A stretch of DNA of 64,000 nucleotides from positions 248,001 to 312,000 of the forward strand of contig NZ_KZ679038.1 in assembly GCF_003024195.1 (NCBI RefSeq), written 5' to 3'. The notes under the pieces are model-generated. The model saw nothing but the letters and a program-made list of their open reading frames with translations. It was not told the DNA's origin and did no database searches. Source of the DNA: Streptomyces dioscori. Its GTDB lineage: Bacteria > Actinomycetota > Actinomycetes > Streptomycetales > Streptomycetaceae. Made by a program: the position numbers and the translations under genes. Positions 13,295-18,966 of the stretch are shown piece after piece (the stretch's first letter is position 1; each line of letters opens with the position of its first letter).

Positions 13295-13972
13295 ATGAGT
13301 ACCTCCACTCATGACGCCCACCACCCAAGGCCTCAGACTTCCTCCATGTCCATGCCCATGTCCATGCCCCGGCTCCTCGGACGGTCGGTCGTCGCAGCCG
13401 CCCTCGTCGCGACCGCCCTGACCGCGTGCGGCACCCAGCAGAGCGGTCAGTCGCAGTCGGCCCGCCCCCCGACCTCGTACCCTCCCCGGCCGAAGTGCGC
13501 GCAGCCTGCGGAGAAGCGCACGGATCCACCCACCGCGCTGCCGTCCTCATCGCGTCCGAGTGCGGATGACGACGGTTCAGGAGGGGGTTCGGGGAAGAAC
13601 GCGGACCGCCCTCCCCACTACGCCGAGAATCACGCCTACCGCATGCAAGGGTCCCTGTCCGAGGACAGGCGGGCCCAAGGTGAGGCCTCGGCCGGGCTCA
13701 TCCGCGGGGAACTTGAGAAAGTCCGGGAGGAGGGCGGTTCCGGCGCGTACGGCGTCTTCGGCGAGCAGCGGATCGCGGCGGCGCTGAAGCGTCTCGGCTG
13801 CGGCAAGGAGCACGGTGTCTACATCGGGAACGGGTTCTACAGCGTCCATACCGGAGTCGTGTGCGTGTCCGGGTATGTGACGAAGGACGAGTTGACCAGC
13901 GAGGTGCACGGCGCCTATGCCGAGCCTCAGCCCGGAACAGGCCCCTGCGTCGAGAACCGGGGAGGCCACTGA
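13295..13972 (+). CDS. Putative lipoprotein of unknown function
   Basis: About 225 aa. After a short N-region with the repeated MSMPMSMP, a hydrophobic stretch (RSVVAAALVATALTAC) ends in LTAC, a clear lipobox, so the protein is probably membrane-anchored on the outside. A Pro/Ser/Gly-rich linker follows. The folded part contains QRIAAALKRLGC, NGFYSVHTGVVCVSGYVTKDE and a last Cys (GPCVE); these Cys could form disulfides. I do not recognise a family. Start is uncertain: ATG 13346 (MSMPM) gives a more compact signal, but neither has a good ribosome site. The stop lies 125 bp before the response-regulator gene. Confidence 0.65.
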   Translation: MSTSTHDAHHPRPQTSSMSMPMSMPRLLGRSVVAAALVATALTACGTQQSGQSQSARPPTSYPPRPKCAQPAEKRTDPPTALPSSSRPSADDDGSGGGSGKNADRPPHYAENHAYRMQGSLSEDRRAQGEASAGLIRGELEKVREEGGSGAYGVFGEQRIAAALKRLGCGKEHGVYIGNGFYSVHTGVVCVSGYVTKDELTSEVHGAYAEPQPGTGPCVENRGGH

Positions 13973-14097: not shown

Positions 14098-14799
14098 ATG
14101 GAACCGGACGCGAGCAGCGGGGACACACCGACGATCCGAGTAGCCGCGGTGGACGACCATCCCATCCTGCTGGACGGGATCGCGGCCTACTTCGCCCGTC
14201 ACGCACCCGACATCGTGCTCGTGGCGACGGCCGAGGACGTCGACACCCTGCTCGCCGAACACCCGGGCGACGGCGGAGCGCTCGTCGTCCTGCTCGATCT
14301 GCGCCTGCGGGACCGCAGCGACATCGGCGCGAACGTCCGTCGGCTACGGGCCACCGGAGCACGGGTGTTGGTCTTCACCGGTGAACAACGCCCCGCGCTG
14401 GTGCGCCGGGCCCTCGACGCAGGGGCGCTGGGCCTGGTGTTGAAGGAGGACCCTCGGGAGCGTCTGGTGGAGGCGATCCATACGGCGGAGACGGGCGAAC
14501 TGTACGTCTCCAGCCGGCTCGCCCACTACATCGTGCACGACCCGCGGGGCGGCGTCAGCCTCTCCCCACGGCAGTTGCAGGTCCTCGACCTGATCGCCAA
14601 GGGGTTGCCGCACGAGGACATCGCGCGCATCCTGCACATCACCGAGGACACCTTGCGCACCCACCGCTCACGAGCGATCCACGCCTACTCGAAGGCGAGC
14701 GGCAGGCAGGTCGAGGGTACGGGTGATCTGGTCTACCGAGCCGTGGCCGACGGTGTCATCGACATCGACCCGGACCTGCCCGAACGGACCGGGCACTGA
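14098..14799 (+). CDS. NarL/FixJ-type response regulator
   Basis: A 234-aa two-component regulator. The receiver domain has the acidic pair in VAAVDDHPILLDG, phospho-acceptor Asp67 (VVLLDLRL), the switch Thr in LVFTGEQ and the conserved Lys in VLKEDP. The output is a LuxR-type helix-turn-helix (LSPRQLQVLDLIAKGLPHED, IARILHITEDTLRTHRSRAI) near residues 150-200. The ATG is preceded by GGGGGGGGAGG; longer in-frame starts run into the previous gene. The histidine kinase gene follows after 23 bp, so the two form a cognate pair in one operon. Targets are unknown; the nearby lipoprotein and the GTPase unit are candidates. Confidence 0.93.
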   Translation: MEPDASSGDTPTIRVAAVDDHPILLDGIAAYFARHAPDIVLVATAEDVDTLLAEHPGDGGALVVLLDLRLRDRSDIGANVRRLRATGARVLVFTGEQRPALVRRALDAGALGLVLKEDPRERLVEAIHTAETGELYVSSRLAHYIVHDPRGGVSLSPRQLQVLDLIAKGLPHEDIARILHITEDTLRTHRSRAIHAYSKASGRQVEGTGDLVYRAVADGVIDIDPDLPERTGH

Positions 14800-14822: not shown

Positions 14823-17081
14823 GTGGAACGCGGGCTGTCGTCCGCGATGGCCGCACTGTCGGCGCTGTTCGCGCTGAGCTGGTCGGTGTTCCTCCTCGCC
14901 GACGGTTCGGCGCCCGATCCCGACGTCCGCGCCGTGGGGGCGGTGTTCCTCGCCCAGGCCGTGATCACGGCGACACGGGGATGGCGCATGCGGCTGTCCC
15001 GCAAGGACGCCGCGGTGGCTTTCGTTCTGGCGGTCCTGGGGCAGGCGGTGATCGCGCTGGGCGGCACGTCGCGCGTCGTGGTCGGGCAGCGTTGTCTGCT
15101 GGCCGTGCCGGCCGTGCTGCTCGCCACCGCAGCGCTGCCACGCTGGGTCGGCCGATGGGTCTGCGTCGCGGCGATCGGGGCGCAGGTGGCCGCGAGCTGG
15201 CCCGCGGACGGACCGGCGGTCGCCCTGGAGAGTGTCTGGCCGGTGGTGGCGACGGCGGTGGCCGGTGGCGTACTCGTTCCGTTGATGCGGACGGCCGGCG
15301 ACCGGGCCGACCGGGCACAGCGACAGGTGCGCGCGGTGAAGGCGGCGGCGGGCCGGGCAGCGGGCCGTCGTGAGGCGCATCGGCATTTCCAGGGCATGCT
15401 GCACGACGAGGTCAGCACGGCGTTGCAGGCCATCAGCCTGCCCGGAGTTCCGGTGGCGCGGCTGCGGGAGGCGGCCACCGGTGCCGTGACCGCGCTCGCC
15501 GCCGCTCCCGCCGGGCCCGGCCTCGGCGGCCGGAGCGATCTCGCGGCCGTGCTGCGCTCCCTCCGGGCACCGGAGGGCACCACGCTGACGATCGAGATCA
15601 CGGGGCAGGTCCCGGTGCCGCCCGACGTGGCCGAGGCGGTGATGGGCGCGGTCCGGGAGGCCTTACGCAACGTCGAGGACCATGCCGGGGCCCGGACCGT
15701 CAGGATCTGCCTGCGACGGGGCGCACGGGACCGTCCCGACGACACGGACCGAGGAAGTGACGGGTTCACGCTGAGCGTCACGGACGACGGCAGGGGCTTC
15801 CCGGCAGGAGAACTCCCCTCCACCTCGGTGGGGTTACGGAGGTCGGTGATCCGCCGGATGACCACCGTCGGAGGATCGGCCGAGGTCCTGAGCACTCCCG
15901 GGCGCGGCACGACCGTGCGGCTCTTGTGGTCCCCCCCGGCGGCGGCTCCCGCGGCCGGGACAGCGGCTCGGCCCGGCGCGGCCGAGGAGACGGTCGGACG
16001 CATGCAGGCCGCGGTGGGCGACGTACGGCGTCCGCTGGCCGCCGTCTGTCTGCCGTTCCTCGCCGTCATGGGCGTCATCGCGGCCGTCCACACGCTCCGG
16101 ACCCCGGGCACGGGGCACCTGTTGGTCTGGTACGTGTCACTCGCCGTCATCACTATGGCGCTCCTGCTGCGCGCCGGAACGGTCATCCCGCGCCCTGTGG
16201 CGTGCGGCGCCTGCGTGTTCGCCGTCGTGGGGGCGCTGGGGAGCTTCCATGTGCTGCCGCTGGTGGGCCTCGCGGACTACACCTCCTGGCCCGTCGGTGC
16301 GGTGACACCGCTCCTCACCCTGCTGGTCATCGTCCGCCCGGCGTGGGAGGCACTGACGGCGTTGGTGGTGGAGCAGATCGGCATCGTCGTCCTGGTCGTC
16401 GCCGGTCCGCCGATCGCGTCCTCGGCCGGGGCGACCGCCGCCCTGGTGGTGCCCGCCCTCTTCGCACCCGCGCTCGGCGTGATCACAGGGCTCGCCATCG
16501 GGCGCACGGTGGCCCGGCTGGGCGGGGCGACGGCACGCGCCGAGGCCGAGCGGTCGGTCACACTCGCCGCCGAAGCCGCCCGCCAGGCACGCGAGGAGCT
16601 GCACAGCAGGAGGCTGGCCGATCTCGGCGAGGCGATCCTGCCGTTGCTCACCGCCGTGGGGTCCGGCCGGTGCGCACCCGACGACCCGGATGTGCGGGAG
16701 CGCGCCCGTCTGCTCGACGGAGCGGTCCGGGACGAGATCCATCTGCCCGGTGTACTCGACCGTGCCGCGCGCGAGTTGCTGAGCAGGGCCCGTGGGGAGG
16801 ACTGCGCGGTCTTCATCCAGTCGGACTCCGACGATCCGCACCCGCCGGCCTTCCTGCGGCTGCTGTTGACCACCGCGCTGAACTGCGGCCCCACCCCGCG
16901 CGAGCTGTACCTCACGGTGAATGCCACGCCGGGTGGGGTGCGTGCCTCCCTGGTGCTCCTCCCGGGACACGAGGTGCGGGCCCGGGCGCTTCGTGAGGCC
17001 GTCGCCGAGGCGGTGACGGGGAGCGTGGTGGAGAACTCGCTCAGCTCCACGTGGGTCGAGGCGGACGTCCGCGCGAGCTGA
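14823..17081 (+). CDS. Two-module sensor histidine kinase with degenerate second half
   Basis: A 752-aa membrane kinase, nearly twice the usual length. Module 1: several N-terminal membrane helices, then the HisKA_3 box with His194 (MLHDEVSTAL), an N-box EALRNVEDHAGA, and the ATPase G-boxes DDGRGFPAG and TPGRGTTVRL ending near residue 370. Module 2 repeats the plan: about six membrane helices, a helical linker (ARAEAERSVTLAAEAARQAR) and a kinase-like region, but no phospho-His and no G-boxes. It may act as a sensing or dimerising pseudo-kinase. Two in-frame TTA Leu codons (15663-15665 and 15834-15836) would make translation depend on the bldA tRNA. It pairs with the response regulator just upstream. 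GTG start with a purine-rich site. Confidence 0.87.
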   Translation: MERGLSSAMAALSALFALSWSVFLLADGSAPDPDVRAVGAVFLAQAVITATRGWRMRLSRKDAAVAFVLAVLGQAVIALGGTSRVVVGQRCLLAVPAVLLATAALPRWVGRWVCVAAIGAQVAASWPADGPAVALESVWPVVATAVAGGVLVPLMRTAGDRADRAQRQVRAVKAAAGRAAGRREAHRHFQGMLHDEVSTALQAISLPGVPVARLREAATGAVTALAAAPAGPGLGGRSDLAAVLRSLRAPEGTTLTIEITGQVPVPPDVAEAVMGAVREALRNVEDHAGARTVRICLRRGARDRPDDTDRGSDGFTLSVTDDGRGFPAGELPSTSVGLRRSVIRRMTTVGGSAEVLSTPGRGTTVRLLWSPPAAAPAAGTAARPGAAEETVGRMQAAVGDVRRPLAAVCLPFLAVMGVIAAVHTLRTPGTGHLLVWYVSLAVITMALLLRAGTVIPRPVACGACVFAVVGALGSFHVLPLVGLADYTSWPVGAVTPLLTLLVIVRPAWEALTALVVEQIGIVVLVVAGPPIASSAGATAALVVPALFAPALGVITGLAIGRTVARLGGATARAEAERSVTLAAEAARQAREELHSRRLADLGEAILPLLTAVGSGRCAPDDPDVRERARLLDGAVRDEIHLPGVLDRAARELLSRARGEDCAVFIQSDSDDPHPPAFLRLLLTTALNCGPTPRELYLTVNATPGGVRASLVLLPGHEVRARALREAVAEAVTGSVVENSLSSTWVEADVRAS

Positions 17082-17210
17082 TCCCGTGCCGGTCGTCCGG
17101 ACGCGGACGGCGTGGCTGTCACCACTGGCGGGGACAGCCAGAACGCGCCGCGGCCGAGAACATCGAGAGGCACTGGGACGCACGGTCCCGGCCCTTCCGG
17201 GAGGACGGCC

Positions 17211-18218
17211 ATGCCCGACTTCATCCGTCAGCATCTACGCAGATTCACCACCTCGGTCGAGCAGTCCGACGCGCTCTCTCCGGCGCAGCGGGCGTCTCTC
17301 CTCCGGGGGTACGAGGAGGCGCTCGTGAACGAGGCGCCGCCGCGACTGGTCCTCATCGGCCAGGCCGGGGTCGGCAAGTCCAAGACCATCAACGCCCTGT
17401 TCAACGCGGGCCAGGAGGTCGGCCACAGCAGGGCCACCACCGACCGGGCCTGGACGATCCCGGTCCAGCAGGTCAGCGGGAGCCACGGAACCCTGGAGGT
17501 CGTGGACATGCCGGGCATCGGCGACGACATCGCCAACTACCGGCGCTACCTCGACCTGTACCGCGAGATCCTGCCGACGGCAGATGCCGTCGTGTGGATC
17601 CACGCGGCCAAGGACCGGACGGTGCAACTCGTCCAGCAGGCGCTGAAGGACCTCTTCGGGCCCAGCCCGGAACTCGTCGGTCGGTTGGTCTTCGGGCTCA
17701 ACAAGGCCGACGAAATGGGTCCTCACGACTGGAACACCCGCGCGAACCTGCCCTCGGAGCTCCAGCGGGCCGCGTTACTGGACCGGGAAGGAGCGTTCAC
17801 CCGCAGCATCGCGCAGACCCTGCCCGCCTGGCGGGGCCGGGCGGTGTCGTACGCCGCACTGCACCACTACAACCTGACGGCGCTGTTCAAGGAGATGATG
17901 TACGCGGTCCCCGAGCAGCGCCGATGGGTCCTGGAGCAGCGGATGGACCTGGCGGACTTCACGGCACTCGTGGACCGCAAGCTGCTGCGGGCCGCCCAGG
18001 CACGCACCCTGGCCGAGGTCCCGGCCGCGACTCCCGAGGCGCCGACCGGGGCCCCCGCACCGGCACCGGGTCTGCGAGAGCGGCCGAACCCCGAGCGGCC
18101 ACGGTCCGTCGACGAGGCGCTCGCGGCGCTGTCGGACGTCCAGTGGCAGGAGTTGCAGACGGATCGGGCACGGTTCCAGGAGTTCGTCCGGCGCGTGGAG
18201 CGGGAGATGGGCCGATGA
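17211..18218 (+). CDS. Era/IRG-like GTPase
   Basis: A 335-aa P-loop GTPase. G1 is GQAGVGKSK (residues 50-58), G3 is DMPG near 99 and G4 is NKAD at 164-167, so guanine specificity is supported. The region after G1 (TTDRAW) supplies the G2 Thr. The C-terminal third (after about 250) has a Pro/Ala-rich linker and then a helical end (SVDEALAALSDVQWQELQTD). No membrane helix is seen. The ATG follows GGGAGGAC; an upstream in-frame ATG at 17112 is possible but lacks a site. One TTA codon (17775-17777) is present. The gene overlaps the next start by four bases, so the two products should be made together. Dynamin-like, septation and conflict-system GTPases all share this core; the role is unknown. 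Confidence 0.85.
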   Translation: MPDFIRQHLRRFTTSVEQSDALSPAQRASLLRGYEEALVNEAPPRLVLIGQAGVGKSKTINALFNAGQEVGHSRATTDRAWTIPVQQVSGSHGTLEVVDMPGIGDDIANYRRYLDLYREILPTADAVVWIHAAKDRTVQLVQQALKDLFGPSPELVGRLVFGLNKADEMGPHDWNTRANLPSELQRAALLDREGAFTRSIAQTLPAWRGRAVSYAALHHYNLTALFKEMMYAVPEQRRWVLEQRMDLADFTALVDRKLLRAAQARTLAEVPAATPEAPTGAPAPAPGLRERPNPERPRSVDEALAALSDVQWQELQTDRARFQEFVRRVEREMGR

Positions 18219-18514
18219 ACGCCGCACCCGAACCGGGCGAGTTCGATTCCATCGTGAACGCGCTGCGCGTCGTCATGCGGGAGCAGGAGGAGAACCTGCG
18301 GGAGATCGACCGGATGTCCGAGGTCTCCTTCCGGCTCTGGCTCAACAGTGTCGCGGGACGTATCGCGAAGGCCGCCGGTGTCTCGCTGGCGCGCATGCAC
18401 GCCTACCTCGGTGATCTGACGACGATCCTGACCAACGCCAGGTCGACGCTGAGGCGTTCGTACCACGACGAGTACCGACGGGCACGCCGTGTACCGCCGA
18501 CCTCGGCCGGCTGA
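18215..18514 (+). CDS. Small helical protein with EVSFRxW motif
   Basis: A 99-aa, entirely helical, charged protein. I recognise no named family. Residues 28-42 read L-x-E-I-x-R-x-x-E-V-S-F-R-x-W, and the same pattern recurs in the next gene's product. After it comes an amphipathic stretch (AGRIAKAAGVSLARMHAYLG) and a basic C-terminus (RRSYHDEYRRARRV). The start codon overlaps the GTPase stop (ATGA), which argues for a stoichiometric partner of the GTPase. The frame continues upstream through the GTPase gene in another register, but that part is only a shadow. Confidence 0.75.
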   Translation: MNAAPEPGEFDSIVNALRVVMREQEENLREIDRMSEVSFRLWLNSVAGRIAKAAGVSLARMHAYLGDLTTILTNARSTLRRSYHDEYRRARRVPPTSAG

Positions 18515-18534
18515 CCGATCAGGAGGAACACACC

Positions 18535-18966
18535 ATGGCGTGGGTCGAGTTCGCTTTTCCCCGGTGCCCGGCCTGCTCCCGCTCCTGGGCCGTCAGCCGC
18601 CACCATGGCTGCCCCACGGCTGAGGCGGTGGGGCACGGCGGTGGTCTTGAGATCGATCCGGACCGGTCACGGGTGCGGTGCACGGGCTGCCGACGCGGCT
18701 GGGGGGTGTGGGAGACACGCTTCCACTGTTCCTGTGGCCGTCGGTTCGAGGCACACGAGGTGGAGGAGGCGGTGCGGGAGGTCATCCGCGTGGCATCGCT
18801 CCTGGCGCGGGTACTGACACAGCAGGCGCGTGACCTGGCCGAGATCCGCCGGGCGGGCGAGGTGTCGTTCCGGGCGTGGGTGAGCCGGTTCACGGACGCG
18901 GTGGCCGGCTCGCTCGGAGCGATGGCAGGCCGGGTCGTGGGCAGTCTGCTGCGGGCCTTGGACTGA
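18535..18966 (+). CDS. Zinc-ribbon protein with EVSFRxW motif
   Basis: A 143-aa protein. The N-terminal half holds Cys pairs typical of zinc ribbons: C11-x2-C14, C26, C49-x2-C52 and C65-x-C67, with His nearby. The C-terminal half is helical and repeats the neighbour's motif at residues 101-115 (EVSFRAW at 109-115), ending in a weakly hydrophobic Gly/Ala-rich helix (VAGSLGAMAGRVVGSLLRAL) that could touch a membrane. It follows the 99-aa gene by 20 bp with an AGGAGG site. The shared motif suggests both proteins bind the same partner, plausibly the GTPase. The family is not recognised. Confidence 0.78.
   Translation: MAWVEFAFPRCPACSRSWAVSRHHGCPTAEAVGHGGGLEIDPDRSRVRCTGCRRGWGVWETRFHCSCGRRFEAHEVEEAVREVIRVASLLARVLTQQARDLAEIRRAGEVSFRAWVSRFTDAVAGSLGAMAGRVVGSLLRALD

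What the first reader, a model, noticed from the sequence alone, without database searches (positions are those of the whole stretch)
17211..18966. GTPase plus two EVSFRxW proteins: candidate undescribed three-gene system
The 99-aa protein and the zinc-ribbon protein share L-x-E-I-x-R-x-x-E-V-S-F-R-x-W at the start of their helical C-terminal parts but are otherwise unrelated. The first overlaps the GTPase stop and the second follows by 20 bp. A shared motif in two different proteins suggests a common docking helix on the GTPase, giving a regulated complex with a zinc-binding sensor or nucleic-acid-binding arm. The architecture would suit a conflict/defence or membrane-remodelling module.
Basis: partly seen in the sequence, partly recalled or inferred. 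Interest (0 to 1): 0.8.

Follow-up and report, generated by a model that had tools for sequence, protein, structure and literature searches.

The report
Two-component-controlled GTPase with twin adaptors
A few Streptomyces strains carry a rare gene cassette in which a membrane sensor and its partner regulator sit, with a conserved DNA palindrome, directly in front of a GTPase and two small proteins that share the same helical module, suggesting a signal-induced GTPase complex of unknown purpose that could now be tested.

Summary
The GTPase (17211-18218), the 99-aa protein (18215-18514, 4-nt overlap) and the zinc-ligand protein (18535-18966, 20 bp on) lie as described, and the 15-residue motif is exact in both small proteins. 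They share about 45 aligned columns, not only the motif. I found the same three genes, in the same order, in 3 other Streptomyces loci. The zinc-ligand protein is rare: 3 strong hits in 392 Streptomyces genomes. In 4 of 4 trio loci a response regulator and a membrane histidine kinase precede it, so the conserved unit has five genes. That pair also occurs in 4 loci without the trio, before other small genes. A palindrome, TGTCCCC-N6-GGGGACA, lies at the kinase 3' end in 8 of 8 loci; half-sites are 96% identical, flanks 36-47%. My reading: a signal-induced GTPase with two adaptors that dock through one shared module. Support for docking is indirect: one cyanobacterial GTPase followed by a weakly similar small protein, and one parallel R-to-L change. 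Defence is untested. No description in print turned up in the searches named.

The parts
14098..14799 (+). NarL/FixJ-type response regulator (REC + LuxR-type HTH); the conserved part begins near the internal ATG at 14098, a longer GTG frame opens at 13861
   Evidence: Pfam Response_reg 37.7 bits (cut-off 30.2) and GerE 40.2 bits (23.5) for the longer frame; internal ATG placed; relatives in the 3 other trio loci, 57-76% identity
14823..17081 (+). Membrane histidine kinase, 752 aa; H-box (LHDEV) and HATPase_c in the first half, a second TM cluster and an H-less, degenerate-looking half after it
   Evidence: Pfam HATPase_c 40.5 bits, cut-off 26.4; hydropathy; alignment of 4; relatives 58-71% in 3 trio loci and 40-55% in 4 loci without trio
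17117..17136 (.). Palindrome TGTCACC-ACTGGC-GGGGACA, proposed operator of the response regulator, between kinase and GTPase
   Evidence: Consensus TGTCCCC-N6-GGGGACA at the kinase 3' end in 8 of 8 loci, 0 mismatches in 6 and 1 in 2; half-sites 96% identical, flanks 36% and 47%
17211..18218 (+). GTPase of the septin/AIG1/Era-like group with a C-terminal tail after a linker of variable length
   Evidence: Pfam MMR_HSR1 36.7 bits, cut-off 21.9; G1 GxxGVGKS, G3 DMPG, G4 NKAD in 4 of 4 trio loci; 62-76% identity to the 3 other trio loci
18215..18514 (+). ORF2, 99-aa helical protein, proposed adaptor
   Evidence: 4-nt overlap with GTPase in 4 of 4 loci; no Pfam match up to E 1; three helices in AF2 model, pLDDT 70
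18302..18340 (+). Shared motif EIDRMSEVSFRLW in ORF2
18535..18966 (+). ORF3, 143-aa protein: N-terminal head with eight conserved Cys/His, C-terminal helical part
   Evidence: C11, C14, H23, C26, C49, C52, C65, C67 kept in 4 of 4 loci; 67-82% identity
18565..18735 (+). Span of the eight putative zinc ligands in ORF3
18841..18879 (+). Shared motif EIRRAGEVSFRAW in ORF3

Best explanation
A five-gene signal-response cassette. A membrane histidine kinase phosphorylates its NarL-type response regulator; the regulator binds the palindrome at 17117-17136 and switches the downstream operon. That operon makes a septin/AIG1/Era-like GTPase and, translationally coupled to it, two small adaptors that share one helical module (E-I-x-[RQ]-x-x-[ED]-x-S-F-[RL]-x-W at a helix joint). 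Both adaptors dock on the GTPase (or pair with each other on it) through this module; ORF3 adds a zinc-stabilised head that contacts a further target (nucleic acid, protein or membrane). The GTP cycle gates the assembly. Shown: gene order, conservation, shared module, conserved Cys/His, palindrome. Inferred: phosphotransfer, regulator binding to the palindrome, zinc binding, docking, GTP-gated assembly. Not known: the signal and the final target.
For: Five genes in order in 4 of 4 trio loci, in different places: among 78 flank ORFs compared (2.6 to 10.4 kb of flank per side) one 38-aa match only. Palindrome at the kinase 3' end in 8 of 8 loci, whether that place is non-coding (4 trio loci), inside the last codons (3) or across the stop (1) of the kinase gene; half-sites 96% identical against 36% and 47% in the flanks, trio loci alone 93% against 37% and 53%; the only site with at most 1 mismatch in each of the 8 loci; both deviating half-sites break the stem, which fits a DNA site better than an RNA hairpin. 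The kinase-regulator pair with the same site also precedes other small genes, which fits a control module with different cargo. Docking on the GTPase: 4-nt GTPase-ORF2 overlap in 4 of 4; a Gloeocapsa plasmid GTPase (40% identity over 71% of the query) is followed 35 bp on by a 92-aa protein with weak likeness to ORF2 (0 to 3 of 1000 shuffles reach the score against the 4 ORF2s), with no kinase or regulator among the genes listed in the 12.7 kb shown (that gene table is incomplete); in G610 the motif R is L in both ORF2 and ORF3, without raised DNA identity between them (0.61; others 0.54-0.63).
Against: The Gloeocapsa pair is a single case (its small protein matches no other plasmid record) and only weakly similar: an ORF2 profile made without it finds it at E 0.36 (best hit outside the cassettes), and against the 4 ORF3s 1 to 71 of 1000 shuffles reach its score. 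The parallel R-to-L change is one event in 4 loci. Allowing small shifts, the left flanks of the palindrome reach 49%. No second site with at most 2 mismatches was seen in front of the regulator gene, and 6 sites with at most 1 mismatch exist in the 10.2-Mb own genome, this one included; at up to 2 mismatches 56 places against 43 for the reversed control. In 3 loci without trio the first shared gene starts about 180 bp beyond the site, in the fourth about 510 bp. No sigma-70-like promoter match near the site in the window. Models of ORF2 and ORF3 are of low confidence and match no solved fold at E 0.001. The loci could share the site by descent with the kinase gene.
Confidence: 0.55

Rival explanations
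1. Anti-phage or other conflict system: the GTPase is the switch, the zinc head or an adaptor the sensor or effector, and the two-component system induces it on envelope damage.
For: Patchy, rare distribution (ORF3 strongly in 3 of 392 Streptomyces; GTPase in 1 of 246 genomes of the phylum at E 1e-15); different flanks; nearest PADLOC profile LeoA over the G domain, E 2.9e-8; a phage-protein family of unknown function matches the GTPase (phrog_16468, E 2e-8); GIMAP/septin-like and zinc-ribbon GTPases occur in described conflict systems (PMC7159879, passages seen).
Against: No nuclease, protease, deaminase or TIR domain in the trio up to E 1; neighbouring genes were not systematically typed for defence; no match of ORF3 (E 0.01) or the GTPase (E 1e-5) in 50,697 phage records; two-component control is not typical of defence (own knowledge).
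Confidence: 0.2
2. ORF2 and ORF3 pair with each other through the shared module (a paralogous heterodimer) and do not dock on the GTPase through it.
For: The shared module is helical in both; parallel R-to-L change in both partners.
Against: A lone, weakly ORF2-like protein follows the Gloeocapsa GTPase, and no ORF3 relative was found in the plasmid collection at E 0.01.
Confidence: 0.2
3. The adaptors dock on the kinase, not the GTPase; GTPase and adaptors modulate kinase activity as CvnF8 does CvnA8.
For: The kinase is present in 4 of 4 trio loci; precedent of an accessory protein stimulating a kinase in an actinobacterial G-protein system (PMC13343842, abstract seen).
Against: The kinase and regulator occur without the trio in 4 of 8 loci; no kinase or regulator listed near the Gloeocapsa pair.
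Confidence: 0.12
4. The palindrome is an RNA hairpin (attenuator or processing site) at the end of the kinase transcript, and the trio is only a neighbour.
For: It can form an uninterrupted stem of 7 pairs or more in the window, L002, L003 and L050 as listed by the script; being a palindrome it can do so wherever both half-sites are intact.
Against: Half-site letters are conserved while the centre varies and the two deviations break pairing; no terminator-like T tract in the window.
Confidence: 0.12

Closest known systems
Actinobacterial G-protein systems (conservons, cvnABCD)
   Same: Streptomyces operon joining a histidine kinase-like protein with a GTPase and small partner proteins
   Different: No roadblock or CvnC-type domain in the five proteins scanned; GTPase matches MMR_HSR1 best and Ras only under its cut-off in two relatives; a response regulator with a putative operator is present
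DO-GTPase / GAP1 / GASH conflict systems (eLife 2020, PMC7159879, passages seen)
   Same: TRAFAC GTPase in the company of zinc ribbons and all-helical proteins
   Different: Zinc-type head is on a separate small protein, no GAP1-like or FNIII protein beside the GTPase, two-component genes upstream
YfjP/YeeP-like GTPases of enterobacterial plasmids and prophages (family names recalled)
   Same: 25-33% identity over 41-70% of the query (Gloeocapsa apart); HMM E-values 4e-29 to 7e-33 in six loci
   Different: No ORF2 or ORF3 relative beside the 6 examined (L023, L028-L032); one marginal ORF2-profile hit, to an EcsC protein, was not upheld
LeoA dynamin-like protein (PADLOC)
   Same: G-domain similarity, E 2.9e-8
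   Different: Match covers 160 of 559 profile positions; no LeoB or LeoC match among the three proteins
MacRS-type NarL-family two-component systems
   Same: Best NCBIfam kinase hit MacS, E 1.1e-9, 38 bits against a cut-off of 300
   Different: Kinase is about twice as long (752 aa against a 367-position model) with a second TM cluster; GTPase trio downstream

Membership tests
TRAFAC GTPases (MMR_HSR1) | Score over Pfam cut-off and intact G1, G3, G4 motifs | tested here: met
   36.7 bits against 21.9; motifs in 5 of 5 proteins examined, Gloeocapsa included
AIG1/GIMAP or septin family proper | Protein scores over the Pfam cut-off | tested here: inconclusive
   Window protein: AIG1 25.7 of 27 and septin 21.6 of 26.2, but AIG1 27.2, over cut-off, in the genome search; G610 protein: septin 26.4 of 26.2 and AIG1 26.5 of 27
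NarL/FixJ two-component system | REC + LuxR HTH regulator beside a kinase with H-box and ATPase | tested here: met
   (H-box read from the alignment by eye)
Actinobacterial G-protein systems (conservons) | Roadblock CvnB, CvnC, and Ras-like CvnD beside the kinase | tested here: not met
   Pfam scan of the five cassette proteins shows no roadblock or DUF domain of that kind; definition from the abstract of PMC13343842
DO-GTPase/GAP1 systems | GAP1 protein of three globular domains, typically downstream of the GTPase | tested here: not met
   The proteins downstream of the GTPase are 99 and 143 aa; definition from passages of PMC7159879
DO-GTPase/GAP1 systems | Conserved glutamate in the Walker B motif | tested here: inconclusive
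   G3 is D[MV]PG in 5 of 5; the paper's alignment was not compared
LeoA-type dynamin-like defence | Full-length match to LeoA with LeoB/LeoC partners | tested here: not met
   Match to 20-179 of 559 positions only; ORF2 and ORF3 match no PADLOC model up to E 1
Anti-phage defence system | Protects cells from phage | not testable with these tools
   Needs phage challenge
EcsC family (considered for ORF2/ORF3) | Profile similarity to the EcsC C-terminal part | tested here: not met
   Marginal hit E 0.0041 not upheld by profile comparison, probability 3.6%

The most novel reading that the evidence does not exclude
A new signalling architecture: a two-component system whose operator acts as a socket for exchangeable response cassettes, one of which is a GTPase with two adaptors that compete for, or jointly fill, one docking site through a shared helical module, so that the GTPase can be steered to two different targets (one through a zinc head).
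Probability: 0.3. Interest if true: 0.75.

Novelty: new variant of a known kind. Interest (0 to 1): 0.58.

Why it matters
Two unlike small proteins that share a docking-type module beside one GTPase make a clear, testable case of adaptor switching in a bacterial G-protein system. The cassette is compact, and a conserved palindrome gives an immediate handle on its control. Loci with the same sensor and palindrome but other downstream genes would, if the reading holds, show how Streptomyces swaps responses behind one sensor.

Tried and rejected
EcsC link for ORF2/ORF3: a marginal profile hit (E 0.0041) to an EcsC protein near a related GTPase on an E. coli plasmid; rejected after profile comparison with five EcsC proteins gave probability 3.6%, and because 22 of the 31 plasmid records with this EcsC protein are not among the 29 records with the GTPase; 9 are in both. 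PHROG hit of ORF2 (phrog_30728, E 0.0034) did not recur in the three other Streptomyces ORF2s or the Gloeocapsa protein and is taken as chance. FYVE-like hit of ORF3 (E 0.0029, under cut-off; 0.03 for AP-93 and none up to 0.1 for G610) is not relied on. Weak ORF3-profile hits beside the true ones: 7 genomes and 6, E 0.0005 to 0.0096; they were dropped from the counts of true hits. Only L004 of these 13 was read (ORF list, judged by eye to be a chance frame); none of the 13 loci (about 3 kb each) shows a GTPase or ORF2 relative by profile below E 1. In the four loci without trio the ORF3 profile gave only hits of E 0.2 to 0.81 in three of them, taken as chance. Fold searches of both models gave nothing at E 0.001. 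Viral contigs: no relative with the Gloeocapsa GTPase as query or as confirming sequence; the window GTPase itself was not used there. Phages: no match of the Gloeocapsa GTPase at E 0.01; AP-93 ORF2 only E 5. Kinase in plasmids: none at E 1e-20. Tandem duplication inside the kinase: halves do not align significantly (E 0.1), so the second half as a pseudokinase stays a reading by eye. Gene conversion as source of the parallel R-to-L change: no raised DNA identity.

Co-occurrence seen from the GTPase side over the genus could not be tested: four requests gave no usable answer.
Full report
OBSERVATION. GTPase and ORF2 overlap by 4 nt, ORF2 and ORF3 are 20 bp apart. The motif is letter-perfect in both small proteins. 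It is not chance: BLASTP of the pair E 2e-7, local alignment score reached by 0 of 2000 shuffles in each of four loci, profile-profile alignment over 45 columns with E 5.3e-7, and the ORF3 profile picks ORF2 out of the whole own genome at E 0.0054. The similarity extends on either side of the motif, so the two proteins share a module, not just a short motif.

CO-OCCURRENCE. A scan of the species-genome collection (84,980 species by the tool's description; pre-filtered by short peptides, so a lower bound) with the GTPase gave two relatives, both Streptomyces: AP-93 (L002) and AC512_CC834 (L003). Both carry ORF2 and ORF3 directly after the GTPase. Over the phylum it matched 8 of 396: the own genome and seven weak ones. 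G610 also has all three genes. So 4 of 4 distinct loci have the trio, each with the 4-nt overlap between GTPase and ORF2. The single protein ORF3 found 1 of 150 Streptomyces genomes, the own; the GTPase profile found 1 of 246 in the phylum at E 1e-15, the own. ORF3 and ORF2 have no match in the plasmid collection (E 0.01 and 0.1), ORF3 and the GTPase none in the phage collection (E 0.01 and 1e-5). I could not test co-occurrence from the GTPase side over the genus.

THE UNIT IS LARGER. In the 3 other trio loci, as in the window, a response regulator (57-76% identity to the window's) and a membrane kinase of 752 to 788 aa (58-71%) precede the GTPase. In AC512_CC834 the regulator match is split over two frames. 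Among 78 flank ORFs of the 4 loci one 38-aa match between loci was found, so the cassette sits in different places. The kinase C-terminal profile matched 7 of 392 Streptomyces genomes at E 1e-10 (apparently the same draw): three are the trio loci, four are not (G627, G110, G107, G091; kinase 40-55%, regulator 48-55%). In the 12 to 16 kb read around these four there is no tblastn match to GTPase, ORF2 or ORF3 and no profile hit but three of E 0.2 to 0.81 for ORF3. Instead a protein of about 50 aa follows the kinase in 4 of 4, a 144-aa protein in 3 of 4 and a 201-aa protein with hydrophobic stretches in 3 of 4. G610 is a hybrid: a relative of the 144-aa protein (51%) lies between its kinase and its GTPase.

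PALINDROME. TGTCCCC-N6-GGGGACA stands at the 3' end of the kinase gene in 8 of 8 loci: it begins 24 to 41 bases after the stop in the four trio loci, lies inside the last codons in three others and across the stop in one. It is perfect in six; the window (TGTCACC) and G610 (GGGTACA) have one mismatch each. Half-sites are 96% identical across all pairs, the 30-base flanks 36% and 47% without gaps; with L050 (nearly L049) dropped 96%, 34% and 44%; in the trio loci alone 93%, 37% and 53%; with small shifts allowed the left flank reaches 49%. Both mismatches break the stem and the centre varies, which fits a DNA-binding site of a dimeric regulator more than an RNA hairpin; no terminator-like T tract and no sigma-70-like promoter was found around it in the window. 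It is the only site with at most one mismatch in any of the 8 loci, and none of ten 64-kb Markov sequences had one. In the own 10.2-Mb genome 6 places have at most one mismatch; at up to two mismatches 56 places stand against 43 for the reversed control, so the relaxed pattern says little. I infer that the regulator binds here and controls the genes downstream. This is not shown.

THE PROTEINS. The GTPase has G1 GxxGVGKS, G3 DMPG and G4 NKAD in 4 of 4 loci; among Pfam families MMR_HSR1 scores best, with AIG1 and septin near their cut-offs; among solved structures septins, immunity-related GTPases, Era and an Arabidopsis GTPase appear as weak profile matches, best E 1.3e-6. A partly conserved C-terminal tail follows a linker of variable length. 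ORF3 keeps eight Cys/His in 4 of 4 loci, enough for two zinc sites; zinc binding itself is inferred. Structure models (three sequences each) are poor: ORF2 pLDDT 70 with three helices, ORF3 pLDDT 56; in both the motif lies at a helix joint.

WHERE DO THE ADAPTORS DOCK? A Gloeocapsa plasmid has a GTPase 40% identical over 71% of the query, and 35 bp after it a 92-aa protein that resembles ORF2 weakly: 0 to 3 of 1000 shuffles reach its score with the four ORF2s, 1 to 71 with the four ORF3s; an ORF2 profile made without it ranks it first outside the cassettes, but only at E 0.36. It matches no other plasmid record. No kinase or regulator is listed in the 12.7 kb shown, from an incomplete gene table. 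This points to the GTPase as the partner. In G610 the motif arginine is leucine in both ORF2 and ORF3, with no sign of gene conversion; one event in four loci is suggestive at most. Six other plasmid GTPase neighbourhoods in Proteobacteria have no ORF2 or ORF3 relative by profile, apart from the rejected EcsC hit.

COMPARISON. Conservons join a kinase-like protein with a Ras-like GTPase, a roadblock protein and CvnC (PMC13343842, abstract and section list seen); roadblock and CvnC parts were not found here. DO-GTPase systems combine TRAFAC GTPases, zinc ribbons and helical proteins (PMC7159879, passages seen); no protein of GAP1 size stands downstream of the GTPase. I found no description of this cassette in the library searches (listings seen); these cover open-licence papers only and used words, not sequence.

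JUDGEMENT. Control through the palindrome is well supported for an inference; docking on the GTPase is moderately supported; the biological purpose is open. Defence is possible but nothing here tests it.

Noticed in passing
window 14823-17081: The kinase seems to hold a second TM cluster and a second, H-less DHp-like and degenerate ATPase-like half, conserved in 4 loci; the halves do not align significantly (E 0.1).
   Followed up: partly
L049 4057-5509; also L050, L051, L052 and L020 6350-6739: Alternative cargo behind the same kinase and palindrome: a protein of about 50 aa (4 of 4 loci without trio), a 144-aa protein with DFRFEMFFDGLTYFG (3 of 4, and G610) and a 201-aa membrane-like protein (3 of 4); the 144- and 201-aa ones have no Pfam match over cut-off.
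   Followed up: partly
L003 2887-3569: Response regulator of Streptomyces sp. AC512_CC834 is split over two frames (frameshift or assembly error).
   Followed up: no
L022 5920-7178: Gloeocapsa sp. PCC 7428 plasmid GTPase followed by a 92-aa protein, next to a site-specific integrase.
   Followed up: partly
L029 1782-4176: Small E. coli plasmid carries a related GTPase near an EcsC-family protein; 9 of 31 EcsC records are also among the 29 GTPase records.
   Followed up: partly
L020 9219-14523: Lanthipeptide-like genes (named by eye: a 1029-aa LanB-like and a 415-aa LanC-like protein) lie downstream of the G610 cassette on the other strand.
   Followed up: no
own genome C1:92128-94125 and C3:556030-556860: Two distant kinase paralogues in the own genome (30% and 35% identity), each with a regulator relative about 30% identical nearby, no GTPase or ORF3 match and no palindrome with 2 mismatches or fewer in the 13-14 kb read; ORF2 profile E 0.038 at best.
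   Followed up: partly
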